Shown here piece after piece: positions 2,746-18,638 of a DNA stretch of 22,009 nucleotides (its first letter is position 1; each line of letters begins with the position of its first letter). This DNA is from a virus. The position numbers and the translations under genes were made by a program. The stretch is taken from positions 1 to 22,009 of the IMG/VR virus record IMGVR_UViG_3300044846_001128, one strand, 5' to 3'. The notes under the pieces are model-generated. The model did not search any database. It saw only the letters and a program-made list of their open reading frames with translations, and was not told the DNA's origin.

Positions 2746-2985
2746 TTATAACTCAATTGCGTGTATTCTAGCTGTACGATCTGCGGCTATGATCTTTACA
2801 CGACTGTTAACTAAAGTAGCATAGGTCATTGTGTAGGTGTTTACTAACTTGCCCTTGTCGTTAAGCCAATGCAAATACACTTTGGAATTAGCAGGAGGAA
2901 TTAATACTGCGCCGTTTGGACCGGGTGTGTATTCTATTTCTGGATTGGCTTCAATCCATTCGTTTTTTAATGCTCGGTAGTTCAT
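2746..2985 (-). CDS. Small phage protein, 79 residues, unknown function
   Basis: Unrecognised. It begins [25 protein letters not shown] and continues with beta-like segments ([21 protein letters not shown]) and a basic C-terminal part. There are no Cys and no membrane segment. The start ATG overlaps the erpA stop as ATGA, so it is read on the same mRNA as iscU and erpA. No Shine-Dalgarno sequence is seen, which fits coupling. Whether it has anything to do with Fe-S assembly cannot be told from the sequence. Confidence 0.72.
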
Positions 2986-3308: not shown

Positions 3309-3684
3309 GATGTTTTTTCCTATAATCTTCTACAGCCGCTTTGATTGCGTCTTCAGCAAGAATTGAGCAGTGTATCTTAACCGGGGGTAATGCTAGTTCT
3401 TCGGCAATTTCGGAGTTTTTAATTGATCCTGCTTGGTCAAGGGTTTTTCCTTTGACCCACTCTGTAATGAGGCTCGAACTTGCAATAGCCGATCCGCAAC
3501 CGTACGTTTTAAATTTCGCATCTGTAATAATACCTGTATCATGATCCACCCTTATCTGTAATTTCATTACATCACCACAGGCCGGTGCACCTACCATACC
3601 TGTACCAATAGTATCGTCAACGTCAAACTTGCCCACGTTGCGGGGGTTTTCATAGTGATCAATTACTTTATCTGAATATGCCAT
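3301..3684 (-). CDS. iscU: Fe-S cluster assembly scaffold IscU
   Basis: Scaffold on which IscS-derived sulfur and iron form a [2Fe-2S] cluster. The 127 residues are a full-length Isc[61 protein letters not shown]. Ligands C36, D38, C63, H105 and C106 are all present. The HscA-recognition motif LPPVK (99-103) is intact, implying that host HscA/HscB can act on it. No IscS is encoded nearby, so sulfur must come from the host. The start ATG has AAGGA six bases upstream and a late-promoter-like TAAATA motif before that. The sequence looks beta/gammaproteobacterial, suggesting relatively recent capture (inference from memory of the family, not an alignment). Confidence 0.97.
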
Positions 3685-3701
3685 ATAGATTCCTTGCCCT
3701 G

Positions 3702-3718: not shown

Positions 3719-3723
3719 TGAGT

Positions 3724-5007: not shown

Positions 5008-5700
5008 TTAGCTCAAATAATCTGTAACAAACTGAGTGGCGGCTGTTTGATATATAGTCATCATTTCAGCATCAGTTTCTCGATCAACACCTGCAAAAGT
5101 TTTAATTTGATTTACAGTAGTTGTAGGATCTGTCCAAAATTGTCTAAAAGGTATTTCAAGAACGTAGTCATAATCAGGTACAGTCTTTAACCACTCTTGT
5201 TCCATAATGATTACATTCTCTAAAACTTTTTCAAATACAATTTGTTGGGTGGCTGTTAGATCGCTCCATGCTGCATCAGGGTTTGGAAATATAGTAGGAT
5301 GAGTCTCAAGCACACCTTTTAAAAAGGTTTCCCAGCCCAGAATTTCTTTCCTTGCAATTGATCTCGTGAAATTTTTTGCTATTGCTGTTACATCGTTAAC
5401 TGTGTGTGTTAGCATTATGAATCGTGTACCAGAACGCTTTTCTTTTAATTGCTCAAATCTAGGCCACCAATACAATGTATGTACATAAGTTCCTGAACTT
5501 AAAAATTCAATGTTATCATACCAAAAATTTTCATCTACAGCCTGATAAAATTGTACGGGATTTGTGAATACATATCCTCTGTTAAAAAATACATCTCCAT
5601 TGCCGTTGTCGATTACACTCCGAACTACTCTGTCCAACAGATTTACTCCGGTTCCGGGACGTCCGTGTACAAAATAAATGTTAGCAGTAGAAGCACTCAT
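5008..5700 (-). CDS. Sulfotransferase-like P-loop protein
   Basis: The N-terminus (from MSASTANIYF) leads straight into FVHGRPGTGVNLLDRVVRSV (residues 10-29), a strand, phosphate-binding loop and helix of the kind seen in PAPS-dependent sulfotransferases and related P-loop enzymes. The C-terminal part, YDYVLEIPFRQFWTDPTTTV followed by NQIKTFAGV, resembles the conserved sulfotransferase segment where a Tyr/Asp-rich strand precedes 'D-P-x-x-x-x-x-I-x-x-F-x-G'. The length (230 residues) fits a small sulfotransferase. The longer reading from 5733 was rejected because ATG at 5698-5700 has AAGGA and a TATAAATA motif upstream. It is the last gene of the modification island. A generic P-loop kinase is the alternative. 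Confidence 0.5.
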   Translation of the reverse strand: MSASTANIYFVHGRPGTGVNLLDRVVRSVIDNGNGDVFFNRGYVFTNPVQFYQAVDENFWYDNIEFLSSGTYVHTLYWWPRFEQLKEKRSGTRFIMLTHTVNDVTAIAKNFTRSIARKEILGWETFLKGVLETHPTIFPNPDAAWSDLTATQQIVFEKVLENVIIMEQEWLKTVPDYDYVLEIPFRQFWTDPTTTVNQIKTFAGVDRETDAEMMTIYQTAATQFVTDYLS

Positions 5701-5702
5701 TT

Positions 5703-6260
5703 TTATTCCTTGTTTTCTATATTTATAGGACAAATCACAAGATGCACTCTGTCAGTTATTCCAGCGTTATAAACAAAATGCGGAAGACGAGTGTCTACTA
5801 GGTAAAAATGACTATCAGCAGGTACGTGTTGACAAAACGCTGTAGGTGCAGTAAAAGACCCCTTAGCTACGTAGGCAGCAGGATTAGTGTTGATTACTAG
5901 ATGGTACCTTACTGTTTCATCATCATGCAGACTAAGTCCTGTATTAGGAATTAGTCGCATAAACCTTACTCTGCCAGGAATAAAGTTTTGGCTTTCTGCA
6001 AACTTTTCTATAATTGATCTAGTATAACTAGGAACATCAGAATTAAACTCAGTAAAATCTTCTTCAAAAAAATAGCGTTCTTTGGTAATTCTGTTCATAC
6101 CGCCACCCATTGAGTCTTTCCATAAGTCTCTGTTAGTATTTTTTCTATGTGTTAATCCTATTTGATTTCCTGGTTCCCAGCTTGTTTTAGTTAAAATTTC
6201 ATCTAAATCTAGGTTAACTTGATCTAAATCAACGGTAAAATCTAATTTTTTTATGAACAT
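5703..6260 (-). CDS. 2OG-Fe(II) oxygenase, Asp/Asn beta-hydroxylase-like
   Basis: Predicted iron- and 2-oxoglutarate-dependent dioxygenase of 185 residues. The double-stranded beta-helix region reads VRFMRLIPNTGLSLHDDETV, then RYHLVINTNP, then HFYLVDTRLPHFVYNAG and DRVHLVI. Candidate iron ligands are H112, D114 and H161. R171 within D-R-V-H-L-V is the expected 2OG-binding arginine, as in the aspartyl/asparaginyl beta-hydroxylase family. The substrate is unknown; hydroxylation of a protein side chain or a glycan-linked group is possible. It sits between a methyltransferase-like and a sulfotransferase-like gene. It starts with no Shine-Dalgarno sequence, three bases past the upstream stop, suggesting reinitiation. 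Confidence 0.78.
   Translation of the reverse strand: MFIKKLDFTVDLDQVNLDLDEILTKTSWEPGNQIGLTHRKNTNRDLWKDSMGGGMNRITKERYFFEEDFTEFNSDVPSYTRSIIEKFAESQNFIPGRVRFMRLIPNTGLSLHDDETVRYHLVINTNPAAYVAKGSFTAPTAFCQHVPADSHFYLVDTRLPHFVYNAGITDRVHLVICPINIENKE
5720..5727 (-). promoter_or_regulatory. T4-late-type promoter motif TATAAATA
   Basis: Exact TATAAATA on the minus strand. Initiation six bases beyond would fall at 5714 and give a 14-base leader carrying AAGGA before the sulfotransferase-like ATG at 5700. It lies inside the 3' end of the upstream oxygenase gene, so it could add an internal late start to the long operon. Confidence 0.6.
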
Positions 6261-6263
6261 AAA

Positions 6264-6809
6264 TTATTTAGTGCCTATTATCATGTAGCGAGTAAAGCTC
6301 CAGTCGGGGTATGTAAAATCCATAGACCCTTTATAAACAATATTACTCAAAGGATATTGAGCAACAAAATTGCCTAGTGTTTCTGAATGTATTACATGAT
6401 CGTGATGCGGCATATTATTGCCCTGTAACACAACCCTAGTTCCTTTAGGTATACGATCAAACCATTCTTTATTTTCAAAGTGTTCTGTGCTGGTGTTAAT
6501 AATTAAATCGCCAAATTGTCCTTGATAATTATTACAGTCTTGTGTAAAGGCTTTAAATTTCCAATCTTGCCATACCCAGTGTTCGTTTATCATATCAGCA
6601 ACGGGCTGGCAAGAAGGATCAATATCTAAACTTCTAATCTTATCTACTTGAAATTTGCCTCTACTCAGCAACAGGAATGAAGTAATGCCATACCATCCTG
6701 CGTAGATATAGGTTAAATTGCTGGACCACTCTAGCTTTTCTAATTCTTCACAGAGCCAAATCTTGCTGCCTATTTGTCCACTACTAAATGCATCTTTGTC
6801 CACGTTCAT
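6264..6809 (-). CDS. Class I SAM-dependent methyltransferase-like protein
   Basis: The 181-residue product has a Rossmann-like layout. LTYIYAGWYGITSFLL (32-47) fits the SAM-binding strand-loop-helix with a degenerate Gly motif, IRSLDIDPSC (59-67) supplies the acidic residue at the end of strand 2, and FGDLIINTSTEHFENKEW matches the motif-IV strand and following acidic segment. FDRIPKGTRVVLQGNN continues the fold. The Gly motif has only two glycines, so binding should be checked. The substrate is unknown. It overlaps both neighbours as ATGA or near-ATGA, deep in the modification island, which argues for a role in the same pathway. Confidence 0.62.
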   Translation of the reverse strand: MNVDKDAFSSGQIGSKIWLCEELEKLEWSSNLTYIYAGWYGITSFLLLSRGKFQVDKIRSLDIDPSCQPVADMINEHWVWQDWKFKAFTQDCNNYQGQFGDLIINTSTEHFENKEWFDRIPKGTRVVLQGNNMPHHDHVIHSETLGNFVAQYPLSNIVYKGSMDFTYPDWSFTRYMIIGTK

Positions 6810-8161
6810 GATATAAATGTTCCTTTAGGCGTATGTCCTACTACTCGAGTATTTGTATGTAGTATGTTTAAAAATTTAGTAAGGTATTGGTAGGACTGTT
6901 CTAGCCCAATACTGGCTATCATATAGTCTGTGGCAAATATATTAGAAATATGTACTAATGACTTTTTAATATCTAACTTAGATATTAGGCTGTAGGGATT
7001 GTTATATAGATCTGTCTGTACAAAAGTTACATTGCTGGATCGAAACTCTGCAAGGTATTGTAAAAATTTAGCCTGTCCTCCATAGTAATCAACCGTTATT
7101 TGAAAACTACTTAAAAAATTATTGTCTATTTTATTTTTATCAATAATAGATGGATTGTCGTGCCCAAACCATATGAGATGTTTTTTATCAGAGAATGTTC
7201 GTATCAACTGTTCTATGTCAGTTTCTGTCGAGGTGTATATATGTTTAATCCAGTCTAGTGATCTAGTGTTGTAGTCATAGATAACTATCTCTCCGTTAGG
7301 TACTAACGCATTAGATTTAAATATGTCAAGATACTTAAATCCGCTGGCCGGTAGAGCAACAACTTCATACTGTTGATCGTTGTTTAGTATGTTCATATTC
7401 TCACTGTTAACTACCCATATCTGATCCGTGACTCCTGTTATCAATTCTTTTATCAGTCTTTGTTGATTAAAATTAGTAACTCGTGTAGGGTCTTTATCTA
7501 ATAGAGCAGAATAAAATTCTTCAGGCTGCGACTCTGGATAATAGTATGTGCGTTTATTTCTTATTGTTTGATTCCAATTAATAATTGTTAAGTCATTCTT
7601 AAATGCTTGATCGATAAAATTCCATCCTGGTTTTGCATGATATTGTAATTGTCTTTGTCCTGTGTCCTTAATCCATAACGGAGTATAGTCGTCGTGAAAG
7701 TTTTCTTTACTCCTTTCTAAAACTACTAACTCGTCAGTGCCTGAAGTCCACCTTCCAAACTTTGGACAGCCAATATTTTTCCAGTGTTTAACATTAACTA
7801 GGACAAACTGCTGATGCAGCTCATACCAATTTTCTTTCCAGTCTAATATGTGTGCGGCTGCTAGATAATTAGGATTGTCCAGTATTTCTTTTTGGATATC
7901 AAAAATAATACCGCTGTCGTAGATCCTTACACCGGAAGACATAAACAAAATATGGCTATAACCACTGTTTTCTTCTAGTCCTTGATCAATAGAATCGGCA
8001 CGTAAGATATCTAGTTCTACAGAAAATTCTTTTATACGATAAGCATAGAATAACGTGTAGTCCATCATCTTATCTAATAACGATTTATAATTGCATCCTT
8101 CGCTGGGATAGATACAGATTGCAAGATTAATCTTGTTATCAAATACTCCTGGAATATTCAT
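6806..8161 (-). CDS. 451-residue protein, possibly two-domain glycosyltransferase-like, unknown function
   Basis: Not assigned with confidence. The first ~200 residues look weakly like a nucleotide-sugar transferase fold: NLAICIYPSEG opening strand, SHILFMSSGVRIYD where a DxD-like segment might be, then YLAAAHILDWKENWYELHQQ and HWKNIGCPKFGRWTSGTDEL. No clear DxD is present. The C-terminal half has alternating strands and helices (EVVALPASGFKYLDIFKSN, GEIVIYDYNTRSLDWIK, SLVHISNIFATDYMIASIG) reminiscent of a methyltransferase or Rossmann fold. Both readings are structural guesses. It overlaps its neighbours by ATGA. It is the longest protein of the window, and a good candidate for a new family. 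Confidence 0.6.
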   Translation of the reverse strand: MNIPGVFDNKINLAICIYPSEGCNYKSLLDKMMDYTLFYAYRIKEFSVELDILRADSIDQGLEENSGYSHILFMSSGVRIYDSGIIFDIQKEILDNPNYLAAAHILDWKENWYELHQQFVLVNVKHWKNIGCPKFGRWTSGTDELVVLERSKENFHDDYTPLWIKDTGQRQLQYHAKPGWNFIDQAFKNDLTIINWNQTIRNKRTYYYPESQPEEFYSALLDKDPTRVTNFNQQRLIKELITGVTDQIWVVNSENMNILNNDQQYEVVALPASGFKYLDIFKSNALVPNGEIVIYDYNTRSLDWIKHIYTSTETDIEQLIRTFSDKKHLIWFGHDNPSIIDKNKIDNNFLSSFQITVDYYGGQAKFLQYLAEFRSSNVTFVQTDLYNNPYSLISKLDIKKSLVHISNIFATDYMIASIGLEQSYQYLTKFLNILHTNTRVVGHTPKGTFIS

Positions 8162-8814
8162 AGCTTACCTACTGACGATTCTATTAATTTTTCAATTGAT
8201 CTATTTGTGCGGCCATGTATAATAATATGATAACGATCTTGATTAGACTCATTTACCACACAGTGTTTAATGCCTACATCTATTATAAATCCTCTCCCAG
8301 GTTTGAAAGGCACTTCTCCGTATTTCTCAAACACAAATTTACAGCCTTCCGGATGTGTTAGTGCAATATTCAAAGGTCCAAAGAATCTTCCGTCGCCGTC
8401 AGTGTGTGGCATAATATATCCTCCAGCGGCCAGTTTCATTATTCTTACTCTTGAAAAACTGTCATAGGGTAGCGAATTGATCAACGATTGGATATAAGGT
8501 GCGTACTCACAGACTTCAGTCCAACGATAATTAGGTTCTTCAGTGTATCCATAACGTTCATAATTCTCAGTCTTATCATAATCTAACCCGTGCAGGGTTA
8601 AGGCAGACCATCCTTCGTGTCCGTAGCTGTGTATTTTATCTTTGTCTCTGTGCGGAACAAAAAAGAATTGTAGTTTATCTAGTTCTTCCCGCACTCGTTC
8701 TTGATCTATGTCTAAGAATACAGGTGCCCATGGCCAGTTAGGATCTTCAGCATCTTTTGGGCGCCAATTCGCATTATTAGTTTCTAGAAATTCTGTTATA
8801 GTTTTGTTAAACAT
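8158..8814 (-). CDS. 2OG-Fe(II) oxygenase, Asp/Asn beta-hydroxylase-like (second copy)
   Basis: Second dioxygenase of the island, 218 residues. The core is RIMKLAAGGYIMPHTDGDGR, then GPLNIALTHPEGCKFVFE, GRGFIIDVGIKHCVVNESNQ and DRYHIIIHG. Candidate iron ligands are H137, D139 and H184, with R194 as 2OG partner. The motif layout is the same as in the oxygenase at 5703-6260, but the two differ greatly outside the core and in their N-terminal parts (here Trp/Pro-rich), so they likely act on different substrates. The substrate is not predictable; the neighbours suggest a target shared with the radical SAM and glycosyltransferase genes. It overlaps the upstream gene by eight bases. Confidence 0.82.
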   Translation of the reverse strand: MFNKTITEFLETNNANWRPKDAEDPNWPWAPVFLDIDQERVREELDKLQFFFVPHRDKDKIHSYGHEGWSALTLHGLDYDKTENYERYGYTEEPNYRWTEVCEYAPYIQSLINSLPYDSFSRVRIMKLAAGGYIMPHTDGDGRFFGPLNIALTHPEGCKFVFEKYGEVPFKPGRGFIIDVGIKHCVVNESNQDRYHIIIHGRTNRSIEKLIESSVGKL

Positions 8815-9766
8815 TAGTTAATTCAATCTTTTCTACTGATCTAAAGGTAGACAAAACTTGTCTGTTCCACTTTAATTTACACTTGTGATTAGAAATTAAC
8901 CAATGATCTTGATTAGGATCAAAGTCTAAAAACTGCTGATCTATTATTAAACTGCCTAATAAAAAACGTCCTAGTGTTAGTTTATTAAGATCGTTAAATG
9001 GTATTTTGTTTTTTATCTCGTCAGGTAAATTTTTTATCTTGTTGTAGAAACTTTGTAGTTGTTCAGTTATATGCACTTCTGGACCAAAATTCATCCATGC
9101 TTCTGCGGCAAATCTTTGTTGTGCTTTTACCTGCTCTCGTTCAATAACTTCAAAGTCCCCATCCTTCAGTACATTCATCCAATCTTTACCTAGAGTATTA
9201 TAGCCCAGATAAAGGTTACCCCATTTAAAGTCTGATTCTAAAAATAACTTATCTTCTTCGTGTATCTGTCCGTGTAGTCCTAGCGGATGTAGATCATACA
9301 ATATACCAGCAGGATTTCCTAGACTACCGTTATCGTTAAGAGCGTCCTCGCACATATGAATGTACTCGTTTAGAGCAAAGAATAAGTTAATTAATTGCTG
9401 CCCAGGACCTGTAGCTTGATAGATAAGACTTTTGCCTGCGAAAGGCCTATCAAGGTATTGTTCAAACTTTTCAAATTCTTCGTGCAGATAATTTAATTTG
9501 TCTGTGTCAAATATGTCATACACAGGCAATTTAATGTGATATAACTTATTGATTGCTAACACTGTCTGTTGTAGAGATTGGAATATTTCTGGAACATCTG
9601 CTTTGGTGCGATTATTAAAAACAGAATGAATCTTACACTGAGGATTGACTAGATTCTTCTCAGTAAGTGTAATCCATTTGTCTGTAAGAAAAGTATCAAA
9701 TAATCTGTATTTGAGTATATGAATTTTTTGATCTTTGTCTTTAATATGGACTACAAGTTTAGACAT
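8807..9766 (-). CDS. 319-residue protein of unknown function in the radical SAM cluster
   Basis: Unrecognised. It starts MSKLVVHIKDKDQKIHILKY; the frame is open upstream to 9853, but ATG at 9764-9766 overlaps the radical SAM stop by eight bases, the usual spacing in this operon. The middle, QATGPGQQLINLFFALNEYI, is followed by a His-rich segment, YDLHPLGLHGQIHEEDKLFL, and WGNLYLGYNTLGKDWMNVL. The His/Glu cluster (H-P-L-G-L-H-G-Q-I-H-E-E) could bind a metal. No membrane segment. Its fixed place directly after three radical SAM genes and before an oxygenase suggests a partner or substrate-handling role, which is inference. Confidence 0.68.
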   Translation of the reverse strand: MSKLVVHIKDKDQKIHILKYRLFDTFLTDKWITLTEKNLVNPQCKIHSVFNNRTKADVPEIFQSLQQTVLAINKLYHIKLPVYDIFDTDKLNYLHEEFEKFEQYLDRPFAGKSLIYQATGPGQQLINLFFALNEYIHMCEDALNDNGSLGNPAGILYDLHPLGLHGQIHEEDKLFLESDFKWGNLYLGYNTLGKDWMNVLKDGDFEVIEREQVKAQQRFAAEAWMNFGPEVHITEQLQSFYNKIKNLPDEIKNKIPFNDLNKLTLGRFLLGSLIIDQQFLDFDPNQDHWLISNHKCKLKWNRQVLSTFRSVEKIELTNV

Positions 9767-10790
9767 TCTTAATCCAGTTAATTTCTTCTTCAGAATATTT
9801 GTAAAGATAATATGAATGGTTGACTGCTTGATGTACACTGTCAACTGATACAATAATATTATTAAATTTTTCTTTACATATTTTGTAAAATTCTTGTGCT
9901 GTTTCTAAATTGCCAGGGTCACACATTATTCTAACACTGACCCAATTAGGGTCTCCAATACCGGGAGCACTAAGATTCTTTCTTCTAACATCAGTTGCTG
10001 CCTGTATACTTTTAATAAACTTATCTGTTCCGTATTGTTTAACATAATTCAAATGAATACTAAAACAGATATCGCTATATTCTGCAAGTTCTCTATAGTA
10101 GTTTTCATTGTGACTTCCATTAGTTGTAGTCATTACTAGGTGTCCGTCTTTCTTAAGACGTTTAACAAACGGAAGATAGTCTTTATAGACAGTTGGTTCT
10201 CCGCCAGTAAAACTAAACTTAGTTTTCTCTCCGTTGATCCAAGGTAAAAGATTATTGTAAGCAGTTTCTAATTGAACATAGGTTTTATGTTCTTCAAAGT
10301 TATTATGTACATTAGAAGGGCAATACCAACAATCAAAGTTGCAGCGTCTACCTATGTCCCATGATACAAATTTGAAAAGATTATTGGTATTTGAATACAC
10401 TACTACTGGATCAACTTTGGAGTGTTTAATATTTAATTTTTTATTGTTAACAACCGAATTAGGAAAATGTTCTTCAATTAGCTCTATAGTTTTTGCTTTA
10501 GGTACTGCCATGTCTGCACCACATGAGCACAAATTGCGGGGGCATTGAATCCAATTCTTTTCTAAAGGAAATTGGTCAGTGTATATATTACCTAGTCGTC
10601 CTCCTACCTTGCAAACTCCTTTAAATATGTCTCCATCAAAGAAAATATATAGATATCTAATACCTATACCACAATACCAATCTTTCCATTTGTTTAGTTC
10701 TGAGGAATGAACAAATTCAACGCTGTGAGTTGAATAGTTTAGATCGTTGTCAACGAAAAAGAGATTGTCATTATCCAGAGGTTCTAACAT
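9759..10790 (-). CDS. Radical SAM protein with N-terminal SPASM-like Cys cluster
   Basis: Radical SAM enzyme: C150-x3-C154-x2-C157 (RRCNFDCWYC) binds the [4Fe-4S] cluster, TGGEP (195-199) is the SAM motif, and VMTTTNG plus ICFSIHLNY continue the partial TIM barrel. Residues 40-95 hold further cysteines (C40, C60, C83, C88, C90; CPRNLCSCGAD) that look like an auxiliary SPASM/twitch cluster placed before, rather than after, the barrel. Such auxiliary clusters are typical of enzymes that modify peptides or sugars. It shares little with the next two radical SAM proteins outside the motifs. It starts 20 bases inside the upstream gene. The reaction is unknown; peptide or nucleotide-sugar modification are the main options. 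Confidence 0.88.
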   Translation of the reverse strand: MLEPLDNDNLFFVDNDLNYSTHSVEFVHSSELNKWKDWYCGIGIRYLYIFFDGDIFKGVCKVGGRLGNIYTDQFPLEKNWIQCPRNLCSCGADMAVPKAKTIELIEEHFPNSVVNNKKLNIKHSKVDPVVVYSNTNNLFKFVSWDIGRRCNFDCWYCPSNVHNNFEEHKTYVQLETAYNNLLPWINGEKTKFSFTGGEPTVYKDYLPFVKRLKKDGHLVMTTTNGSHNENYYRELAEYSDICFSIHLNYVKQYGTDKFIKSIQAATDVRRKNLSAPGIGDPNWVSVRIMCDPGNLETAQEFYKICKEKFNNIIVSVDSVHQAVNHSYYLYKYSEEEINWIKNV

Positions 10791-12030
10791 TTATAATATC
10801 TTTAAAGAACGAATTATCTGTGCCGCGTAATTGATCTAGTTTATCAATATATTCAATTGTTTGATCAAATATATTGCTCCAATCTTCACTGTTCATAAAA
10901 TCAATAATTTTTAACATGCGTTGAATACTAGGATTATCTGTATTATCTCTTGCAAATTTATAAAGTTTTTCTGATACTTTATTTTTAATTTCTTTAGGTA
11001 ATGCTTTAACGCAGAGATATTTTGGATAGTGAAGGATACCAGGATGAAATGTCCCATCTAAATTAACTCGACTAATTTTTTTAAAGTTCTGTACTGCTAA
11101 CCAATTAACTAGTTCTGGTAAGAAGAATATGTTTAATATCTGTACTGTACAAAGAATTTTTACTTCTATCATGGAAGGAGTATTATCGTATAGTTCTAGA
11201 TTTTTTCTTATAGTTTCCCAATCTGAAGGATAGCGTATATAGTCGTTTACTTCTTTGGCACCATCAATGCTAATCATAATATCAACAAATTTAAATTTAG
11301 TCCACAGTTCAACAACTTCTTTATCATAGATACTGCCGTTGGTATGATAACGAAGTTCGATATGTGTTGATTCACCCGTTGCAACTAATTTTTCTAATAT
11401 CTCTTTGTGTTCTTTAATATACAAAGGTTCACCACCACCAAATATTATATGACGGATATCTTTAGCAGACTCATAAAAATCTTTTAGAAATGTTTCATTC
11501 TTATACCATTCAAAGTTATTGGTTGAATAGTTTTCAATTTTGTGTTTCCAATCCCATTTAGCGTCTGTTTTCAATTCTTCTTTTAAAATAGTAGCATGTT
11601 TGACCCATTTACTACTATCAATTGGCCTGCACATAACACACTGTAGATTGCAAGTGTTACCTAATCTTAAATCTAAAGTGATCCATTTACTTGCTAGACT
11701 GCCGTCACTTTTAGTTTCATTTATTAAATCAGTTATATAATCATCGCCAAGTTTATTTTTCCAAATATGATTTTCAATCTGTCTATGGCTATACATTCCT
11801 ATTTCTTCTAACTTATAACAGGCGCCGCACTCTTTTACCTTTGCTCCGACCATCATTAATCTTCTAGCCTGTCGAAAATGACTGCTGTTCCATATTTCTT
11901 CCGGGCTCATTGTGTTAAAATTAAGTTCTTTTCGAGAATTTGCTACACAGCAAAGCAAGGCAGAACCGTCAGTGTATGATGCCATATGAGTCCACGGCAA
12001 TATGCAAAATGTTTTTGTTCTTTCAGTCAT
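10771..12030 (-). CDS. Radical SAM protein with N-terminal twitch domain
   Basis: Resembles the twitch-domain-containing radical SAM family. The N-terminal domain has F-C9-I-L-P-W, C27/C28, IWNSSHFRQARRLM and C68-G-A-C71, the pattern for an auxiliary Fe-S cluster. The radical SAM motif is C127-x3-C131-x2-C134 (NTCNLQCVMC), with GGGEP (198-202) for SAM, LRYHTNGS and IMISIDGA. The 419 residues end in a ~100-residue helical tail. It therefore needs about two clusters per molecule. It overlaps the neighbouring paralogue by eight bases. The substrate is unknown; the cluster context (glycosyltransferases, oxygenases) suggests sugar or peptide modification. Composition is markedly AT-rich. Confidence 0.9.
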   Translation of the reverse strand: MTERTKTFCILPWTHMASYTDGSALLCCVANSRKELNFNTMSPEEIWNSSHFRQARRLMMVGAKVKECGACYKLEEIGMYSHRQIENHIWKNKLGDDYITDLINETKSDGSLASKWITLDLRLGNTCNLQCVMCRPIDSSKWVKHATILKEELKTDAKWDWKHKIENYSTNNFEWYKNETFLKDFYESAKDIRHIIFGGGEPLYIKEHKEILEKLVATGESTHIELRYHTNGSIYDKEVVELWTKFKFVDIMISIDGAKEVNDYIRYPSDWETIRKNLELYDNTPSMIEVKILCTVQILNIFFLPELVNWLAVQNFKKISRVNLDGTFHPGILHYPKYLCVKALPKEIKNKVSEKLYKFARDNTDNPSIQRMLKIIDFMNSEDWSNIFDQTIEYIDKLDQLRGTDNSFFKDIINVRTSG

Positions 12031-13342
12031 TTAATAATTTTGCTAACTTAGGATTTACTAATTCTAGATTTTGATTTCTTTCTTTATCTAATATTTTAGT
12101 ATAAGATCGTAGACGATCAATTTGCTCTTTCCAATCTTTTGATCTTCCGTTGTTAGTCAGTAGTCCGATTATCCCATCAATACTATTGACGGTTAGTTCG
12201 GGAGATCGTTTGTTTATTTTAGTATTTTTGTATTCAATCAACAAATCGGCGGCTTGTTTCATCATATCTTCAGGTAGAATATCTACTTTTAAAAATTCAG
12301 GATGTATGTTAATTAAAAAATCAACAAAGATATGTTTTTTATATTTTTGTTGTATATCGTCTACCCAATTAAGTATATTAACTAAATCAAATACATTGTA
12401 AGTCTGTACTGTAGGAGTAATACCAAGATGCACGTTTGACATCTGTGCCAGTTTCTCAATGTTTGCACTAATTTGCAGCCATTTACTAGGAGCACGAATA
12501 TAATCATTCATTTCTCCTATGCCGTCAATACTGGCATTTATGTAGACATTGTCAAATTGTTGAATTAGAGCAGTGAATTTTTTGTTAACATTGGTGCAAT
12601 TTGTATTAAAGAATAACACAATATCTTTTCTACCTTGTTTGATACATTCTTCCATGAACTTAAAGTTGTTTTCAATTAAAGTAGGTTCTCCGCCTGTCAT
12701 ATAGACTTTGTGTAGTTTGGGAATTAATTCAATGATCTGATCCCATAAAATATCATCTTCAAAAAATTGTTGTACATCTAGAAATTGTTTATTGAAATGA
12801 CCAAAAGATTTTTCCCATACTAATTTGTATTCTTTGTCTCGGGTTTCTAAATCAAGATGTTCTTTAGCGATTTGACTACTATTCCACGGACTGCACATTC
12901 TACATTTTAAGTTGCATAGATTACCTAATCTTAAGTCAAGGTAAGCAATACTATAATCAAGCTCGCCGTTCTTAAGTATTGCCTTATCCATTAATTTATA
13001 AAGATGGTCTTTACCTAGTTTGCCTGCCCATTCATCATTGGATTGTTGCCTGTTGCTTTTTCTTCCGCTGTCTTCTTGTAAGTAACAGACTTCACAACCA
13101 GAAACTTTATTGCCAGAGATCATGTCAATTCTAATTTGTTTTAATCTGCTGCTATTCCACAAGAGTTTAAAGTCGTCTCGTACTGTGGCTATCGACCCGT
13201 CTTCGTTATGCAGAACATTAGTGCCTTTCTTCATCATACAACAAGGTTTTACAGTTGCATCCGGATTGACCATTAAGCCAACAAAAGGTATGGCACAAAA
13301 TGTTGGCATTATTTCTGTAATTGCCTGATCAAATGTTTGCAT
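12023..13342 (-). CDS. Radical SAM protein with N-terminal twitch domain (paralogue)
   Basis: Same architecture as the enzyme at 10771-12030: twitch cysteines F-C16-A-I-P-F, C34/C35, LLWNSSRLKQIRIDM, C83-x2-C86; radical SAM cysteines C143-x3-C147-x2-C150 (NLCNLKCRMC); TGGEP (216-220); LFFNTNCT and INASIDGIG; then a helical tail of about 130 residues. The 439-residue start at 13340-13342 has GGAG ten bases upstream, one of few clear ribosome binding sites in the island. Tandem paralogues suggest two successive or two substrate-specific steps. AT-rich like its neighbour (lines around 12061 are about one-quarter G+C). Confidence 0.9.
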   Translation of the reverse strand: MQTFDQAITEIMPTFCAIPFVGLMVNPDATVKPCCMMKKGTNVLHNEDGSIATVRDDFKLLWNSSRLKQIRIDMISGNKVSGCEVCYLQEDSGRKSNRQQSNDEWAGKLGKDHLYKLMDKAILKNGELDYSIAYLDLRLGNLCNLKCRMCSPWNSSQIAKEHLDLETRDKEYKLVWEKSFGHFNKQFLDVQQFFEDDILWDQIIELIPKLHKVYMTGGEPTLIENNFKFMEECIKQGRKDIVLFFNTNCTNVNKKFTALIQQFDNVYINASIDGIGEMNDYIRAPSKWLQISANIEKLAQMSNVHLGITPTVQTYNVFDLVNILNWVDDIQQKYKKHIFVDFLINIHPEFLKVDILPEDMMKQAADLLIEYKNTKINKRSPELTVNSIDGIIGLLTNNGRSKDWKEQIDRLRSYTKILDKERNQNLELVNPKLAKLLND

Positions 13343-14333
13343 TTGGATATGTCTCCGTAAATTTTAATTTTAACCAATCTCTATTGTTTATCATTGCTAA
13401 TGCTTCTTTATCATCTTGATTTAACAGACCGTATTTTAATCCAAAAGCTGCTCCTTCGAGACAAAATTTTCCGTAGGGTTTATCTTTCCCTATGGTTTTC
13501 CATGCAATGATTCTAATATTGTCAGCCTCATCAACATTTCCATTCTTTATAGCTCCAGACATTAATTTAGTGCATTCTCTTACTGCACTTCGCCATGTAC
13601 TAAAAGGGTCGGCATTGAATGCAGTAATGTTGCTAATTTTAGAAATAACATTAACATCACCTAAAGATGTTGTCATGTCAATTGTATTCTCATTCGCATT
13701 TAATATTAGTTTTTTTGGAAACAGTTTTATTCCGCCATAGCCGTATTCCAAATCATTAATCGGATTTTTACTTTTCCAAATATAAATTTTATCTCTATCA
13801 AATAGCCCAGGTTGAAAATCAAACTTCCATCCGTCAACAATATAAGAATCACCGTCGACAACATAGAACATGTCAGTCTTGGCTAATTCTGCTGCTGCTT
13901 TATGAGCACGGTGTATTCCTTTTATTCCTTGTATTCTTTTTGCTCTAGGGGCAAATTCTAATAGACGTTTAAAGTTTTCGTCCGCGTTGGGTTCATCGTA
14001 GCTAATAAAGATAATATCAAAATAACAGGCAGTGTTTAAATCGTAATTTCTTTTAGACCAGCCAGACTGCGGGGTCCAATTTTTAGGAAATTTCTTTATG
14101 AACCAATGTAATTCATTGTTCCATGTGCTTTCCCAAACTATTACTTTTTTTGAATCAACATTAATATCGGCATAGTTTAATACCCAGTCATCGAATATAG
14201 GATTGACCATAACGACATCTTCTACTGAAGTATCTTGAACTTGGGAAGCTAGTTTATATAGTCGTTCGTCATAAGATTTTGGGTCTTCGTCCCATCTAAC
14301 CGTTGCAACATATTTTTTATCAATAATTTTCAT
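13329..14333 (-). CDS. Glycosyltransferase-like protein with DGD motif
   Basis: GT-A-like protein of 334 residues. IIFISYDEPNADENFKRLLE opens the nucleotide-binding fold, and MFYVVDGDSYIVDGWKF carries the metal-binding D160-G-D162. Between them lies RAKRIQGIKGIHRAHKAAAEL. The first ~100 residues are an extra N-terminal segment absent from the next gene. The C-terminal part has DPFSTWRSAVRECTKLMSGAI, matched in the paralogue at 14330-15262 (SPLQAWRAGFREGVKMSLDQ). Donor and acceptor sugars are unknown. It overlaps the upstream gene as ATGA and the downstream one by 14 bases. The assignment rests on motif and layout, not a search. Confidence 0.72.
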   Translation of the reverse strand: MKIIDKKYVATVRWDEDPKSYDERLYKLASQVQDTSVEDVVMVNPIFDDWVLNYADINVDSKKVIVWESTWNNELHWFIKKFPKNWTPQSGWSKRNYDLNTACYFDIIFISYDEPNADENFKRLLEFAPRAKRIQGIKGIHRAHKAAAELAKTDMFYVVDGDSYIVDGWKFDFQPGLFDRDKIYIWKSKNPINDLEYGYGGIKLFPKKLILNANENTIDMTTSLGDVNVISKISNITAFNADPFSTWRSAVRECTKLMSGAIKNGNVDEADNIRIIAWKTIGKDKPYGKFCLEGAAFGLKYGLLNQDDKEALAMINNRDWLKLKFTETYPNANI

Positions 14334-15262
14334 ATATCAATTATATCCCATGTAATTTCTTTTTCTGTTAATGCAGTGTGTGTTCTTGGGGGATTAGTCC
14401 ATACTTCTTTAAAAAAGAGGCTTTGTTTATTGTCTAGGTCTGCAACTGGCAATAATAATTTTGATCTAATTTTATTCCCTAGCTCAAAAATCCTTAATTT
14501 TAACAAATCATCACTACACCCTAGCACATTCTCTTGCCAATAACGATTAAGGTATTCAAAATCTCTTACTTGTATATAATCCCAATCAGTACAGTTAGTC
14601 ATATAACATCCTAATCTTGCACCGTAGATACTCCAAAGACCGTTTTCAATATCAGCACCTACACTACACCACATTAGTAGTCGTTGATAGTTACGTTTAC
14701 CTAATTGACGTTTTGGATTTATTAGTTCCTGTCGTTGACCCTGGTCCAACGACATCTTTACACCTTCTCGAAAGCCTGCTCGCCATGCCTGTAATGGACT
14801 AGCATTATTGTATACAACTGAATATGCTTCTGCCATTTGAGTATAATTGTCTTGCCAACAAAAGTCAACTTGATTGGTGTTGTTTTCTGCATCTTCGTGT
14901 GTTTTCATGTTGAGTACAAATTCTCTTGTCCAACATTTTAATCCACCATTGCCATAAACTAATCCGTTAATAATATTTTTGCCTGCCCAACTCAATTGGG
15001 TTTTGTCTTTCTTTGGAAGTTTGTCAAGATCAATCTCTAAATCAAAGAATTTTGGATCTACGATATTATCAGCGTCTACTGTTATAAAATATTCTGTATC
15101 TGATAAACGAGCACAGGTCTTATGTGCTGCATCACTGCCTTTAACTCCGTGAACACGTTTAGCCCAGGGTGCTTTGTTTACTAGGTCTGCATAGTTACGT
15201 TCGGCATTGGGCTCGTCATAACTTAAAAATATGCAGTCAACCTCAGCTAGATTTAATTTCAT
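14330..15262 (-). CDS. Glycosyltransferase-like protein with DAD motif (paralogue)
   Basis: 310-residue paralogue of the gene at 13329-14333, lacking its first ~100 residues. FLSYDEPNAERNYADLVNKA aligns with the paralogue's ISYDEPNADENFKRLLEFA, AKRVHGVKGSDAAHKTCARL with AKRIQGIKGIHRAHKAAAEL, and ITVDADNIVDPKFF with the DGD region; D63-A-D65 is the predicted metal site. The tail (LFFKEVWTNPPRTHTALTEK) is unique. Tandem duplication followed by divergence is the simplest origin. Starts inside the upstream gene (20-base overlap). Likely a nucleotide-sugar transferase; substrates unknown. Confidence 0.74.
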   Translation of the reverse strand: MKLNLAEVDCIFLSYDEPNAERNYADLVNKAPWAKRVHGVKGSDAAHKTCARLSDTEYFITVDADNIVDPKFFDLEIDLDKLPKKDKTQLSWAGKNIINGLVYGNGGLKCWTREFVLNMKTHEDAENNTNQVDFCWQDNYTQMAEAYSVVYNNASPLQAWRAGFREGVKMSLDQGQRQELINPKRQLGKRNYQRLLMWCSVGADIENGLWSIYGARLGCYMTNCTDWDYIQVRDFEYLNRYWQENVLGCSDDLLKLRIFELGNKIRSKLLLPVADLDNKQSLFFKEVWTNPPRTHTALTEKEITWDIIDI

Positions 15263-15788
15263 GGTTATAACTTTTAAATATTTTATTTGTGTAGAAACAA
15301 AAATTATTGTTTCCTAAATAATCAAACTTTGCTATTTGATTATTAAAATCTTCGTGAGTTAATGCCTTAGACCATAATATAAGATAAGGATCCTTATCTA
15401 AACAGGCTGCTAGATATAATTTTTTATGTTTAAAATTGCTGTCTTGCTGCCACCAATAAAACATTCTTTCGTCAATAGTAATCTGTACAGTCTTGTCTAA
15501 GATATTTTGCGTAATTACAACATCAGAGTCCTCTTTATTTTCGTTGATTAAATGCACTCTATCTTTTATTGATACCGTGGTAACATTAGTGGTTGTCTTG
15601 GGTTGTATAAATCCTGTATTTGGTGCTGCACCAACAATTACTTTATATCTTAATAATTTTTCTTTTCCAAGAAAAATATCCATGGCTAGTTGATCGTCAG
15701 TATTAATATAAGGATCTGTACGATTAGAATCTAGTATTCCAGACATACCTACTATGTTTCCGTTTTCTGAGTTATAGTAGACTATCAT
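15243..15788 (-). CDS. 181-residue protein of unknown function
   Basis: Not recognised. It begins MIVYYNSENGNIVGMSGILD and is beta-rich through the middle (YKVIVGAAPNTGFIQPKTTT, VSIKDRVHLINEN, KTVQITIDERMFYWWQQDS), ending KFDYLGNNNFCFYTNKIF. N-terminal strands of the type 'I-V-Y-Y-x-x-x-x-G-x-I-V' occur in small phage structural proteins, so a virion role is possible. It sits between two glycosyltransferase pairs and overlaps both neighbours, so it could equally be an acceptor or partner of the enzymes. No membrane segment, one Cys in the middle third (C129) and one near the end. Confidence 0.62.
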   Translation of the reverse strand: MIVYYNSENGNIVGMSGILDSNRTDPYINTDDQLAMDIFLGKEKLLRYKVIVGAAPNTGFIQPKTTTNVTTVSIKDRVHLINENKEDSDVVITQNILDKTVQITIDERMFYWWQQDSNFKHKKLYLAACLDKDPYLILWSKALTHEDFNNQIAKFDYLGNNNFCFYTNKIFKSYNHEIKSS

Positions 15789-16564
15789 AAGAAATCCTTC
15801 TGTACATAATGCAGTACTCCAGATTGCAGATAAGGACCTAGTTTAATACCTTGACTAGTATTGTATCTATTTAAAACAGTGTCCCAAGGCTCGCTAGGTG
15901 TTCGCCATCCTTGGCATCCGCCTTTCATATGTGTAAATGTTGGAAAGTCTGCTGATGTAGTTACTTCAGATTCAATGTCTAATATTTTAACAGCCATGGC
16001 CATGGCTAGATCAATGCTGGGAAATAGTTGTCGAGACTCTGGAGCATATCTAACACTCCATGCATTCCAATTTGTCACTATTGATGTTAATAGATTAAAG
16101 AATATTTTGTTCTGTTGAGTCTTTTTAAAATATGTAAATGCGGAATAAGTGTTAGGCATGTTATTTGCTGCAAAGGCTTTTCTATAAGGATTAACATTGA
16201 CCCAATCATCTCTGTATGTTTTTACTTTACTAGTAATTAACATATCGTATTTGCTCATCATATCCCACCAACCGCTTACATCGCTAAGGAATAACATGTC
16301 TGCATCTAATATCACAGTTTCATCGTATGGTGACAAATCATAGAACTGACAACGATTATGTATCTTCCATTTGTCATCTCCAGACATATCAGTTGGCAGC
16401 TCGATAAAATCATCTACAGCAGAATGTTCAGTGACATCAACATCACAGTCTACAATGATACTGATATTGTTTACCGTCGACTGCGTTTTCTTAATGCTTT
16501 TAGCCAAAGCAATAGCCATGTCTAGATAGTCACCTTGAGCCATTACTAGATATCCGCGACTCAT
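15785..16564 (-). CDS. GT8-like glycosyltransferase
   Basis: 259 residues with a GT8-like layout. RGYLVMAQGDYLDMAIALAK is the N-terminal strand and helix, DDKWKIHNRCQFYDLSPYDE leads to TVILDADMLFLSDV with D87-A-D89 binding the metal-nucleotide, and YSAFTYFKKTQQNKIFFNLL and FTHMKGGCQGW follow. The motif PYDET-(x)-x-(x)-D-x-D is shared with the next gene at 16564-17379, making the two a paralogous pair. The host-sugar donor is unknown. It starts ATGA-coupled within the long operon. Glycogenin/LPS-galactosyltransferase relatives are the nearest family by architecture. Confidence 0.74.
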   Translation of the reverse strand: MSRGYLVMAQGDYLDMAIALAKSIKKTQSTVNNISIIVDCDVDVTEHSAVDDFIELPTDMSGDDKWKIHNRCQFYDLSPYDETVILDADMLFLSDVSGWWDMMSKYDMLITSKVKTYRDDWVNVNPYRKAFAANNMPNTYSAFTYFKKTQQNKIFFNLLTSIVTNWNAWSVRYAPESRQLFPSIDLAMAMAVKILDIESEVTTSADFPTFTHMKGGCQGWRTPSEPWDTVLNRYNTSQGIKLGPYLQSGVLHYVQKDFL

Positions 16565-17379
16565 TATGCAACTCCTAATTTTATTCTATTAACCAAATCA
16601 AATTTGTTCATAACGTGTACGTCTAGTTCTTTAATCTTGCATAAGCCTTTCTTGGTTAAGAACTTAGTTGAATTCTCATTGAGTTCTAGGAGTCTATCTT
16701 CATAGTTACTATGATGTATATTCCAAGGAATAGTATCAATCCATTTGTTATTGGCTGTGCCACCAAGACTGTGTATCGCTACAGACCAAATAAAATCGTT
16801 TCTTACAGGACCGTCGTAAAGATCATACACATGCTTGAACCAATTGTAGTTTTCTTTTATATATCTACAATGATCAAAGAACAGTTTTGTAGTATCTGTC
16901 TTTTTAAAATAAAACACAGTGGCCCAGAAGAATTTAACTGACTTGTCATTTACCCAAGTAAACTCAAGATCCTTAACACCGTATAGATCAGTACTGTAAT
17001 CACAGGCTAATATGTCTGATTTGTGTCCCCATAGTTTGTTTAATTGGTTGCTTTGGATTACAACATCAGTATCTATTACTATAGTTTCATCATAAGGAGT
17101 TATATCCCATGCATCGATTCGATTTAAATTATGGAATGTTAACTGCCTATCAACGTATCTTTTAGTCTGTGTCGCTGAACTTTCTTCAAAAAAGATTTTA
17201 TCAAAACTCAAGGTCCAGTCAGGTATTAGATTATCAAGTTTATGTTTTGTTATTTGATCAGTGACTAGGCTAACAGACTTGTTCAAATATTTTTGTATTC
17301 TTCTAGCTGTCCATAGCGCCATCAGCCCATAGTCAACTTCTTCGTTATTATAGGCAAAGAGTAAAAATCCCTGTGTCAT
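16564..17379 (-). CDS. GT8-like glycosyltransferase (paralogue)
   Basis: 271-residue partner of the gene at 15785-16564. GFLLFAYNNEEVDYGLMALW is the N-terminal strand/helix; NLNRIDAWDITPYDETIVID leads to D103-T-D105; FFWATVFYFKKTDTTKLFFD matches the YFKKTxxxKxFF segment of the paralogue. The C-terminal part (RNDFIWSVAIHSLGGTANNK, then TIPWNIHHSNYED) resembles the acceptor side of GT8 enzymes. Donor and acceptor unknown. The start overlaps the stop of the 112-residue gene as ATGA. The pair may add two successive sugars (inference). Confidence 0.74.
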   Translation of the reverse strand: MTQGFLLFAYNNEEVDYGLMALWTARRIQKYLNKSVSLVTDQITKHKLDNLIPDWTLSFDKIFFEESSATQTKRYVDRQLTFHNLNRIDAWDITPYDETIVIDTDVVIQSNQLNKLWGHKSDILACDYSTDLYGVKDLEFTWVNDKSVKFFWATVFYFKKTDTTKLFFDHCRYIKENYNWFKHVYDLYDGPVRNDFIWSVAIHSLGGTANNKWIDTIPWNIHHSNYEDRLLELNENSTKFLTKKGLCKIKELDVHVMNKFDLVNRIKLGVA

Positions 17380-17714
17380 AGATCTGTAAGAGATTTAACA
17401 CTTCGTTGTGTACGTAACTTAGCGAACTCTTCTCCGTATTTTACCAGTGCCTGCTGATAAATTGATTGTGCTTCTGCTAAAAATGTCACAGGATTTTCAA
17501 TATGTGTTGGGTTGCCGTTGACATCAATAAACCAATTACTGTTTGAATCAAATGAACCTAACCACTCTTGAGTTATTTTAAATAGTCCGCCATTACTTGC
17601 TATCAACGTGTCTGATTCAAACTTTTCTTTGAGTAGTCTACGCTGTTGATTAATAGTAGTTTGGTATTGAGCAAAGCTCAGGGCAGATTCTAAATGTTGA
17701 TCGATGTTTTCCAT
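17376..17714 (-). CDS. 112-residue protein, possible tail-fibre-related accessory
   Basis: Unrecognised. Mostly helical with two long helices (NIDQHLESALSFAQYQTTIN, and at the end LAEAQSIYQQALVKYGEEFA) flanking a short beta part, LIASNGGLFKITQEWLGSFD and NWFIDVNGNPTHIENPV. Small helical proteins with such a central turn are common next to phage tail genes. It is first in the coupled island and lies 44 bases after the virion-type gene, with a perfect 10-base inverted repeat in that gap. No Shine-Dalgarno sequence is visible. A chaperone or connector for the neighbouring virion protein is a guess. Confidence 0.68.
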   Translation of the reverse strand: MENIDQHLESALSFAQYQTTINQQRRLLKEKFESDTLIASNGGLFKITQEWLGSFDSNSNWFIDVNGNPTHIENPVTFLAEAQSIYQQALVKYGEEFAKLRTQRSVKSLTDL

Positions 17715-17758: not shown

Positions 17759-18604
17759 TTACCAGTTAGATGTATTTGAAGGAGTCGGAGATGTCACTGT
17801 AATGGCAGATTGACTGAAGTATCGTGTGATACTGGCGGCGGCATCTGTATTAACATTTTCGTCCTGTGCCGGGCCGGTGCCTGTTTGATCACCAACGTCG
17901 GCATCATTAAGAATAACACTGATAGTTAATACTGTGGTGCTGGTTTTAGTTATGTTGATTTGGCAATAGTTTTCTAAGTATTGTGCAGCGTTACCATATT
18001 CAGTAACAGAAATATTTGTGCCAGCATCCCACTGTGTGTTGCCGTAGGTCTGTGTAGCAATGGCGTTTAAAATATTGTTAGCCCAATCTGTATCTTTAGC
18101 ACTGGGACTGCTTGCAGGGGCTGTGCCAGATACATCAACAACAAAATAACCGCCGGCATTGAAATAATAATTTGCAGAAGCAGCATCTGGCCAGGTAAAA
18201 GTATAGGTCCAAGTATGAGCACCATTCCAGGCCGCTGTTAGAGATGTACTTAGAGCGGCACTGCCTAGTTGTGTGGCTGCAAAGACAGTATTTTTATTAG
18301 TCTCGCAATAGTCTGCCGCTGTTTTGTAAGCGTTCCAGTCATCTTTATAAATTATACCGCCAGTGGCTAAGTCGTTGATAGCACTGTTTCCGCCTGTGAT
18401 ATGCGTGTAGGCTTTGTTGATATCGGCACGTAACAAATCCATTTGTGCTGCCGAGATAGTAGTACCTTGACTAACTGCTGAACTAGTTACCGCATTTCCA
18501 TAATAGGTGCTGACTACTCCGTCTATCACAGATTTGATAGCGTTGTAGTCTTGATAATATATTGTGTCGCCCGTTACTTTGGGGAATACGCCTGCTCCAG
18601 CCAT
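17759..18604 (-). CDS. Putative virion structural protein, Ser/Thr/Ala/Asn-rich
   Basis: 281 residues, low in charge and Cys, rich in Ala, Thr, Asn and Ser: the composition of tail, fibre or head-decoration proteins. MAGAGVFPKVTGDTIYYQDY opens it, followed by NAIKSVIDGVVSTYYGNA and a beta-rich C-terminal half (TWTYTFTWPDAASANYYFNA, INITKTSTTVLTISVILNDA, AITVTSPTPSN). The phrase GDTIYYQDYNAI recurs in diverged form as GGIIYKDDWNAY, suggesting two related N-terminal segments. Preceded by TAAATA and AGGA, as for late genes. The exact virion location is unknown. It is a plausible target of the glycosyltransferases on either side (inference). Confidence 0.75.
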   Translation of the reverse strand: MAGAGVFPKVTGDTIYYQDYNAIKSVIDGVVSTYYGNAVTSSAVSQGTTISAAQMDLLRADINKAYTHITGGNSAINDLATGGIIYKDDWNAYKTAADYCETNKNTVFAATQLGSAALSTSLTAAWNGAHTWTYTFTWPDAASANYYFNAGGYFVVDVSGTAPASSPSAKDTDWANNILNAIATQTYGNTQWDAGTNISVTEYGNAAQYLENYCQINITKTSTTVLTISVILNDADVGDQTGTGPAQDENVNTDAAASITRYFSQSAITVTSPTPSNTSNW

Positions 18605-18630: not shown

Positions 18631-18638
18631 TATTTAGT
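18631..18638 (-). promoter_or_regulatory. Late-promoter-like ACTAAATA
   Basis: ACTAAATA on the minus strand keeps the TAAATA core of the T4 late consensus (6 of 8 matches). Predicted start is near 18625, giving a leader of about 20 bases with AGGA before the virion-type gene at 18604. Confidence 0.4.

What the first reader, a model, noticed from the sequence alone, without database searches (positions are those of the whole stretch)
5008..17714. Large modification island: radical SAM, 2OG oxygenases, glycosyltransferases, methyltransferase and sulfotransferase-like genes in one coupled run
About 14 genes joined by 4-20 base overlaps encode three radical SAM enzymes, two Asp/Asn-hydroxylase-like oxygenases, four glycosyltransferases in two paralogous pairs, one methyltransferase-like and one sulfotransferase-like protein, plus unknowns. 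The coupling implies one pathway. It sits beside a virion-type gene, so a modified virion glycan or peptide is a leading idea; envelope remodelling of the host is the alternative.
Basis: partly seen in the sequence, partly recalled or inferred. Interest (0 to 1): 0.82.

Follow-up and report, generated by a model that had tools for sequence, protein, structure and literature searches.

The report
Phage tail-fibre chemical modification operon
A large, uncultivated virus of bacteria carries 15 tightly packed genes for radical, oxidising and sugar-adding enzymes; they directly follow a virion fibre gene and probably share its late promoter, so the virus may chemically decorate its own host-binding fibres, which nobody has yet shown.

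Summary
From 5008 to 17714 (minus strand) 15 genes abut: 12 of 14 junctions overlap by 1-20 nt. They encode three radical SAM enzymes, two PF05118 oxygenases, a glycogenin-like glycosyltransferase pair, a second glycosyltransferase-like pair with no Pfam or PDB family, and a methyltransferase-like protein. The sulfotransferase label is unsupported. All genes are under purifying selection.

The block is not a one-off. The order fibre gene d - e - GT8 - GT8 - h - GTa - radical SAM recurs in hundreds of uncultivated, mostly T4-like virus contigs, some with up to 17 radical SAM genes. Genes e and GTa occur in none of 50,697 deposited phage records. In the large clade the tail-fibre genes lie just upstream. 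In an unrelated phage the d domain is fused to a tailspike beside the same enzymes. A T4-type late promoter motif precedes d and the fibre genes far above chance but not the enzyme genes, which therefore probably read through from d.

Best explanation: a late-expressed operon that modifies the co-encoded fibre (confidence 0.5). Host-surface remodelling remains a real rival (0.25): related enzymes occur in predatory bacteria and, without d/e, in Vibrio phages. No modification has been demonstrated.

The parts
18631..18637 (-). CTAAATA, T4-type late promoter motif 26 nt before the start of d
   Evidence: same position in L001-L004, TATAAATA/CATAAATA there in L024/L026/L028; motif enriched upstream of d in relatives
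17759..18604 (-). d, 281 aa virion fibre-type protein (N-terminal helices, C-terminal beta domain)
   Evidence: d domain fused to a tailspike in L031; confident model, no PDB match, BFVD match TM 0.71 to unnamed proteins
17376..17714 (-). e, 112 aa unknown; followed by GT8 in 80 of 80 relatives
16564..17379 (-). f, GT8-like glycosyltransferase
   Evidence: profile match to glycogenin E 1e-6
15785..16564 (-). g, GT8-like glycosyltransferase, paralogue of f
15243..15788 (-). h, 181 aa unknown
   Evidence: conserved in the module
14330..15262 (-). i, GTa-family glycosyltransferase-like (VDADN)
   Evidence: no match in 50,697 phage records
13329..14333 (-). j, GTa-family glycosyltransferase-like (VDGD), paralogue of i
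   Evidence: i/j-type pair fused in 15 relatives
12023..13342 (-). k, radical SAM with N-terminal twitch/SPASM domain
   Evidence: NF033640 E 5.5e-105, PF04055 and PF13186
10771..12030 (-). l, radical SAM with N-terminal twitch/SPASM domain
   Evidence: NF033640 E 6.2e-111
9759..10790 (-). m, radical SAM with N-terminal Cys-rich domain
   Evidence: PF04055 E 3.6e-15; absent in L003
8807..9766 (-). n, unknown partner protein (corrected start)
   Evidence: fused to an m-type radical SAM in L033 and L034
8158..8814 (-). o, PF05118 2-oxoglutarate oxygenase
   Evidence: E 1.7e-11, 44.6 bits against cut-off 22.6
6806..8161 (-). p, GT-A-like domain plus methyltransferase-like domain
   Evidence: model pLDDT 90.6; Foldseek to LH3, PBCV-1 capsid GT, NNMT
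6264..6809 (-). q, methyltransferase-like
   Evidence: motif only; family fused to GTa pair in L325
5703..6260 (-). r, PF05118 2-oxoglutarate oxygenase
   Evidence: E 1.9e-6, 28.2 bits against cut-off 22.6
5008..5700 (-). s, unknown with a P-loop-like N terminus (corrected start)
18646..19455 (-). c, GT-like protein upstream of d
   Evidence: phrog_1574 E 3.6e-29, weak GT PHROGs
3301..3684 (-). IscU/NifU-type Fe-S scaffold, possible cluster supply
   Evidence: phrog_8429 E 6.8e-41
2982..3308 (-). A-type Fe-S carrier (sequence reading; second copy 3694-4050 +)
   Evidence: C-x-C-G-C motif read directly; the two copies are about 32% identical

Best explanation
The block is a late-expressed operon that post-translationally modifies, most likely glycosylates and remodels by radical and oxygenase chemistry, the fibre protein(s) encoded with it. 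Proposed order of events: (1) the phage late sigma system reads from the motif in front of d through e and all enzymes (motif statistics shown; transcription inferred). (2) Fibre d, perhaps helped by e, is made together with the enzymes (inferred). (3) GT8 (f, g) and GTa (j, i) build a short glycan or add single sugars, with methyl capping by q and p (inferred from families and fusions). (4) Radical SAM k, l, m with partner n, and oxygenases o, r, make C-H functionalisations on the same protein or glycan (inferred). (5) Phage IscU and A-type carriers nearby may supply the clusters (inferred). The modified fibre would alter receptor binding, stability or escape from host recognition.
For: Order kept d-e-GT8-GT8-h-GTa: e followed by GT8 in 80/80, preceded by d in 76/80, tail-fibre genes upstream in 70/70, GTa downstream in 49/49 and radical SAM in 47/49 testable loci. 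In all 14 relative records that have e, the nearest radical SAM array lies downstream on the same strand, usually within 6 kb. The same core follows a different upstream context in the window's lineage (b, c; no fibre family phrog_14394 in its three longer relatives). d domain fused to a tailspike in unrelated L031, where GTa, two radical SAM, n, AspH and p follow within 13 kb. In L036 and L047 the enzymes lie between fibre and tail sheath or tube genes. Late motif [AC]TAAATA 20-50 nt before d in 66/136 and before fibres in 64/149 clustered upstream regions (expected about 11 and 8), but e 4/100, GT8 4/182, h 1/90, GTa 2/203, radical SAM 26/481, all at or below chance (also 113). Both motif variants are published T4-type late promoters (PMC2984593, PMC1524935). 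Fusions GTa-GTa (15), GTa-GTa-MT, radical SAM-n. No membrane segment in any of the 15 proteins. p resembles LH3 and the PBCV-1 capsid glycosyltransferase, both protein glycosyltransferases.
Against: No modified virion has been observed. Much of the synteny comes from one virus clade and could persist by descent. The same radical SAM family occurs in Vibrio phages without d, e, GT8 or GTa, near a pagP gene. Predatory bacteria carry GTa-MT-radical SAM clusters with ordinary GT2 genes and no phage fibre found. p lacks a clear DxD and its matches have low TM-scores.
Confidence: 0.5

Rival explanations
1. Host-surface remodelling: the enzymes alter host LPS, capsule or surface protein glycans to block superinfection or aid release; they sit by the fibres only because both evolve in the same hypervariable host-interaction region.
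For: Pelagimyophage host recognition clusters hold fibres, GTs and radical SAM cassettes and are read this way by their authors (PMC7029224). Related GTa-MT-radical SAM clusters exist in predatory bacteria beside GT2 genes. Epimerases occur in 6 of 15 relative records, in three of them inside or at the end of the island. Vibrio phage K566 has such radical SAM genes near pagP.
Against: No membrane protein in the run, so no flippase or membrane GT as in seroconversion cassettes; no NDP-sugar nucleotidyltransferase over cut-off in 15 relatives; d and e travel with the enzymes and d carries the late promoter motif.
Confidence: 0.25
2. A RiPP-like or small-molecule product: radical SAM, oxygenases and GTs mature a peptide (possibly e) or build a diffusible compound.
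For: SPASM/twitch radical SAM enzymes are often peptide maturases; distant similarity of k, l to PapB-type maturases.
Against: No gap above 3 nt between s and e, so no room for a short precursor gene; e is a 112 aa conserved protein without a Cys-rich or variable core; no transporter or protease in the run.
Confidence: 0.1
3. Auxiliary metabolism: the radical SAM and Fe-S genes serve host Fe-S or cofactor metabolism, unrelated to virions.
For: T4-like environmental genomes with an A-type carrier and 12 radical SAM genes were reported and read as Fe-S metabolism (PMC5332604).
Against: Does not explain the fixed d-e-GT8-GT8-GTa order or the fusions of GTs with each other and with a methyltransferase.
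Confidence: 0.07
4. DNA hypermodification system.
For: Phage DNA modification pathways can use oxygenases and GTs (own knowledge).
Against: The oxygenases are PF05118, not TET/JBP; no TET/JBP match in 15 relatives, though the control rang nowhere, so absence is not proven.
Confidence: 0.03

Closest known systems
Host recognition cluster (HRC) of pelagimyophages and cyanomyophages (PMC7029224)
   Same: Hypervariable region of T4-like marine phages with tail fibres, glycosyltransferases and radical SAM cassettes
   Different: The passages read describe no fixed d-e-GT8-GT8-h-GTa order, late-promoter linkage, oxygenase-p pair or radical SAM arrays, and read the GTs as host O-chain modifiers
T4-like environmental genomes with an A-type carrier/IscU and up to 12 radical SAM genes (PMC5332604)
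   Same: Fe-S assembly genes plus many radical SAM genes in T4-like marine viruses
   Different: Interpreted as Fe-S metabolism; the section read makes no link to fibres or GTs
NF033640 twitch domain-containing radical SAM family
   Same: k and l are clear members
   Different: No function is assigned to the family in the sources read; m is not a member by cut-off
Chlorovirus PBCV-1 capsid glycosylation and LH3/collagen hydroxylysine glycosylation
   Same: Virus-encoded or oxygenase-linked protein glycosylation; p's GT-like domain matches both structurally
   Different: Weak fold match only, no clear DxD, tailed phage rather than NCLDV, radical SAM enzymes added
GTa-MT-radical SAM clusters of Bdellovibrionota (L115, L118, L119, L121, L123, L124, L128)
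   Same: Same GTa, methyltransferase and radical SAM families clustered, including a radical SAM-GTa fusion in L128
   Different: Bacterial contigs, no d, e or GT8 found nearby

Membership tests
Radical SAM, NF033640 N_Twi_rSAM | CxxxCxxC motif, N-terminal twitch/SPASM cysteines, score over 170 bits | tested here: met
   k 351.7 and l 371.3 bits; SPASM PF13186 at the N terminus; motif kept
Radical SAM, NF033640 N_Twi_rSAM (protein m) | Score over 170 bits | tested here: not met
   m scores 25.5 bits; it is a radical SAM protein by PF04055 only
PF05118 Asp/Asn beta-hydroxylase-like | Over curated cut-off; HxD/E...H pattern | tested here: met
   o 44.6 and r 28.2 bits against 22.6; pattern in 46 of 46 distinct relatives
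GT8 glycosyltransferase (f, g) | GT-A fold with DxD; match to GT8 | tested here: inconclusive
   Profile matches glycogenin E 1e-6 over about 100 residues and a D-x-D is present, but no GT8 Pfam hit
Glycosyltransferase (i, j; GTa) | Recognisable GT fold or family | tested here: inconclusive
   D-x-D-like motif; one of 14 relatives hits PF13641 at E 0.017; no PDB hit
Sulfotransferase (s) | Over PF13469 cut-off | tested here: not met
   13.7 bits against 27; no PDB hit
SAM methyltransferase (q) | Match to a methyltransferase family or structure | tested here: inconclusive
   No Pfam or PDB match
Seroconversion (gtr-type) cassette | Membrane flippase and membrane glycosyltransferase | tested here: not met
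   No membrane segment in the run
Radical SAM RiPP cluster | Short precursor peptide gene next to the maturase | tested here: not met
   No gap over 3 nt from s to e; e itself remains a conceivable substrate
Virion-protein modification system | Covalent modification on virion protein | not testable with these tools
   Needs virion mass spectrometry
TET/JBP-type DNA hypermodification | PF12851 oxygenase | tested here: inconclusive
   0 of 15 relatives, but controls rang nowhere

The most novel reading that the evidence does not exclude
Hundreds of uncultivated, mostly T4-like jumbo phages share a late-transcribed tail-fibre operon in which arrays of radical SAM enzymes, together with new glycosyltransferases, oxygenases and methyltransferases, install C-H-derived modifications and glycans on receptor-binding fibres: a radical-chemistry protein maturation system for virions, with a related, still unexplained enzyme set in predatory bacteria.
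Probability: 0.4. Interest if true: 0.9.

Novelty: new variant of a known kind. Interest (0 to 1): 0.75.

Why it matters
If true, phages build chemically modified fibres with radical enzymes, which would change how host range, receptor recognition and fibre stability are thought to evolve in some of the commonest marine viruses, and would provide a large set of uncharacterised radical SAM protein or glycan modifying enzymes. It also turns 'hypervariable auxiliary genes' into a specific testable claim: modified late virion proteins.

Tried and rejected
Whole-window nucleotide search of phages: no match. GTa and e protein searches of phages, from the window and from the large clade: no match. 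PDB profile searches for d, h, p, GTa, q and s gave nothing reliable. PDB fold search of d: none below E 0.001. GTa against GT8 profile comparison: no relation detected. The first iterative profile for n absorbed m-type radical SAM proteins because of natural fusions; a clean profile was built. Relatives of a virus record cannot be drawn by taxonomy. The diverse e alignment was too variable to scan, so a closer set was used. A possible conserved Tat-exported substrate in predatory bacteria was rejected: the two candidates are not homologous at a meaningful level (E 0.03). sigma-70 promoter scan: 80 found against 67.8 expected, not informative. Exact TATAAATA in the window alone is not above chance; the promoter argument rests on position and relatives.
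Full report
What the window is. The window is a 22,009-base IMG/VR virus record without near relatives among 50,697 deposited phage records. It carries an ATP-dependent DNA ligase, a SleB-type cell wall hydrolase (4280-4879), an IscU/NifU-type scaffold and two proteins read here as A-type Fe-S carriers, and the reported block.

The observation. The block is real. After correcting two over-long TTG starts, 15 genes run on the minus strand from 17714 down to 5008; 12 of 14 junctions overlap by 1-20 nt and two have gaps of 2-3 nt. Three radical SAM proteins and two PF05118 oxygenases pass curated cut-offs. k and l belong to NF033640, with the auxiliary cysteine domain at the N terminus. f and g match glycogenin by profile. 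i and j form a second pair with a D-x-D-like motif and no PDB family. q is methyltransferase-like by motif only. s is not supported as a sulfotransferase. p, unknown by sequence, gave a confident model (pLDDT 90.6) with a GT-A-like N-terminal domain, whose best matches include lysyl hydroxylase LH3, majastridin and the PBCV-1 capsid glycosyltransferase, and a methyltransferase-like C-terminal domain; scores are modest and no clear DxD is visible.

Conservation. Four other contigs carry the same order at 58-95% protein identity; one (L003) lacks m. Every gene with a computable value is under purifying selection, dN/dS 0.03-0.17. A wider scan found more than 520 virus contigs with relatives of k/l. 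The order d-e-GT8-GT8-h-GTa is retained in lineages whose e proteins are only 26-40% identical, while radical SAM genes, methyltransferase, AspH-p and n vary in number and place downstream. Single records hold up to 17 NF033640 genes.

Link to the virion. In 80 e-centred loci, all e genes are followed by GT8 on the same strand, 76 are preceded by d, and all 70 with enough upstream sequence have fibre genes there. These loci were retrieved with sequences from one clade, so they are not 80 independent events. The upstream proteins match tail fibre and virion structural PHROGs and structural proteins of PA5oct-type Pseudomonas phages and Campylobacter tail fibres. In the window's own lineage this fibre family is absent from the three longer relatives, and b and c precede d instead, but d-e-GT8-GT8 remains together. 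In L031, a contig without gp23, a d domain (E 2.9e-26 with a profile built without it) is fused to a tailspike, and GTa, two radical SAM genes, n, AspH and p follow downstream. In L036 the enzymes lie between a fibre and a tail sheath gene, and in L047 between a fibre and a tail tube gene. d itself has a confident model without PDB match and strong BFVD matches to unnamed viral proteins.

Expression. T4-like phages use late promoters TATAAATA/NATAAATA, and Aeh1 uses CTAAATA (PMC2984593, PMC1524935). In relatives, [AC]TAAATA lies 20-50 nt before d in 66 of 136 and before fibre genes in 64 of 149 non-redundant upstream regions, where about 11 and 8 are expected, but before e in 4 of 100, GT8 4 of 182, h 1 of 90, GTa 2 of 203 and radical SAM 26 of 481, at or below expectation (with the stricter motif and dinucleotide shuffles). 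In the window CTAAATA lies at 18631-18637, 26 nt before d, at the same place as in L001-L004, and is TATAAATA or CATAAATA at that place in L024, L026 and L028. The enzymes therefore most likely read through from the promoter of d, as late genes; this is inferred from sequence, not measured.

Functional coupling. Natural fusions join GTa to GTa (15 cases), GTa-GTa to the q family (L325) and n to an m-type radical SAM (L033, L034); in the last, the auxiliary Cys domain lies C-terminally, permuted relative to m. A bacterial protein (L128) joins a radical SAM-like region to GTa; its radical SAM part was recognised by the CxxxCxxC motif and weak profile matches only. n-o-p behaves as a submodule: it is missing as a block in L028, and AspH and p stay neighbours even when inverted.

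Interpretation. Co-inheritance with d, the tailspike fusion, position within tail gene regions and the promoter pattern favour modification of the fibre. Against this stand Vibrio phages that carry the radical SAM family without d, e, GT8 or GTa, bacterial GTa-MT-radical SAM clusters in Bdellovibrionota, and published readings of such regions as host-surface modifiers. The absence of membrane proteins and of NDP-sugar nucleotidyltransferases over cut-off weighs against a complete envelope pathway but does not exclude cytoplasmic modification of host precursors. The target is therefore held at 0.5 for the fibre and 0.25 for the host surface.

What is known. T4-like genomes with many radical SAM genes and Fe-S carriers were reported in 2017, and fibre regions with GTs and radical SAM cassettes in 2020. 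Searches of the open-access library found no description of the fixed operon, its late-promoter linkage or the fibre fusion. That library lacks most subscription papers and preprints. A speculative parallel is that Bdellovibrio recognises prey with phage-like chimeric fibre proteins (PMC10769870), so a shared fibre-modifying enzyme set is conceivable; nothing here tests it.

Noticed in passing
window 2982-3684 (-) and 3694-4050 (+): IscU-type scaffold and two A-type carriers beside an island with three radical SAM enzymes; IscU relatives seen only in some close kin, an A-type carrier in most of the lineage.
   Followed up: partly
L115, L118, L119, L121, L123, L124, L128: Predatory bacteria (Bdellovibrionota MAGs) carry GTa-MT-radical SAM clusters, with a radical SAM-GTa fusion in L128; function unknown.
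   Followed up: partly
L097-L109, L122, L125: Contigs binned into bacterial or archaeal MAGs (Neomarinimicrobiota, Rickettsiales, Pacearchaeota and others) carry this phage fibre-enzyme locus; L098's assembly also holds gp23. They look like phage contigs in bacterial bins.
   Followed up: partly
L033:12469-14604, L034:12619-14703 against window 9759-10790: The auxiliary Cys domain of the m-type radical SAM lies C-terminally in the fused proteins and N-terminally in the window: a domain permutation.
   Followed up: no
window 13329-14333 (j): j is the most divergent gene in most comparisons (64% identity against 78-95% for its neighbours in L001 and L002), with the highest dN in those two.
   Followed up: no
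L336 and L337 (Vibrio phages K566, D484): Cultured phages with several N_Twi-like radical SAM genes beside GT-like genes (K566 also near pagP), without d, e, GT8 or GTa: a tractable laboratory system.
   Followed up: partly
window 5720-5726 (-): A late-promoter-like ATAAATA lies 19 nt before the corrected start of s, inside r; it may be a second late start.
   Followed up: no
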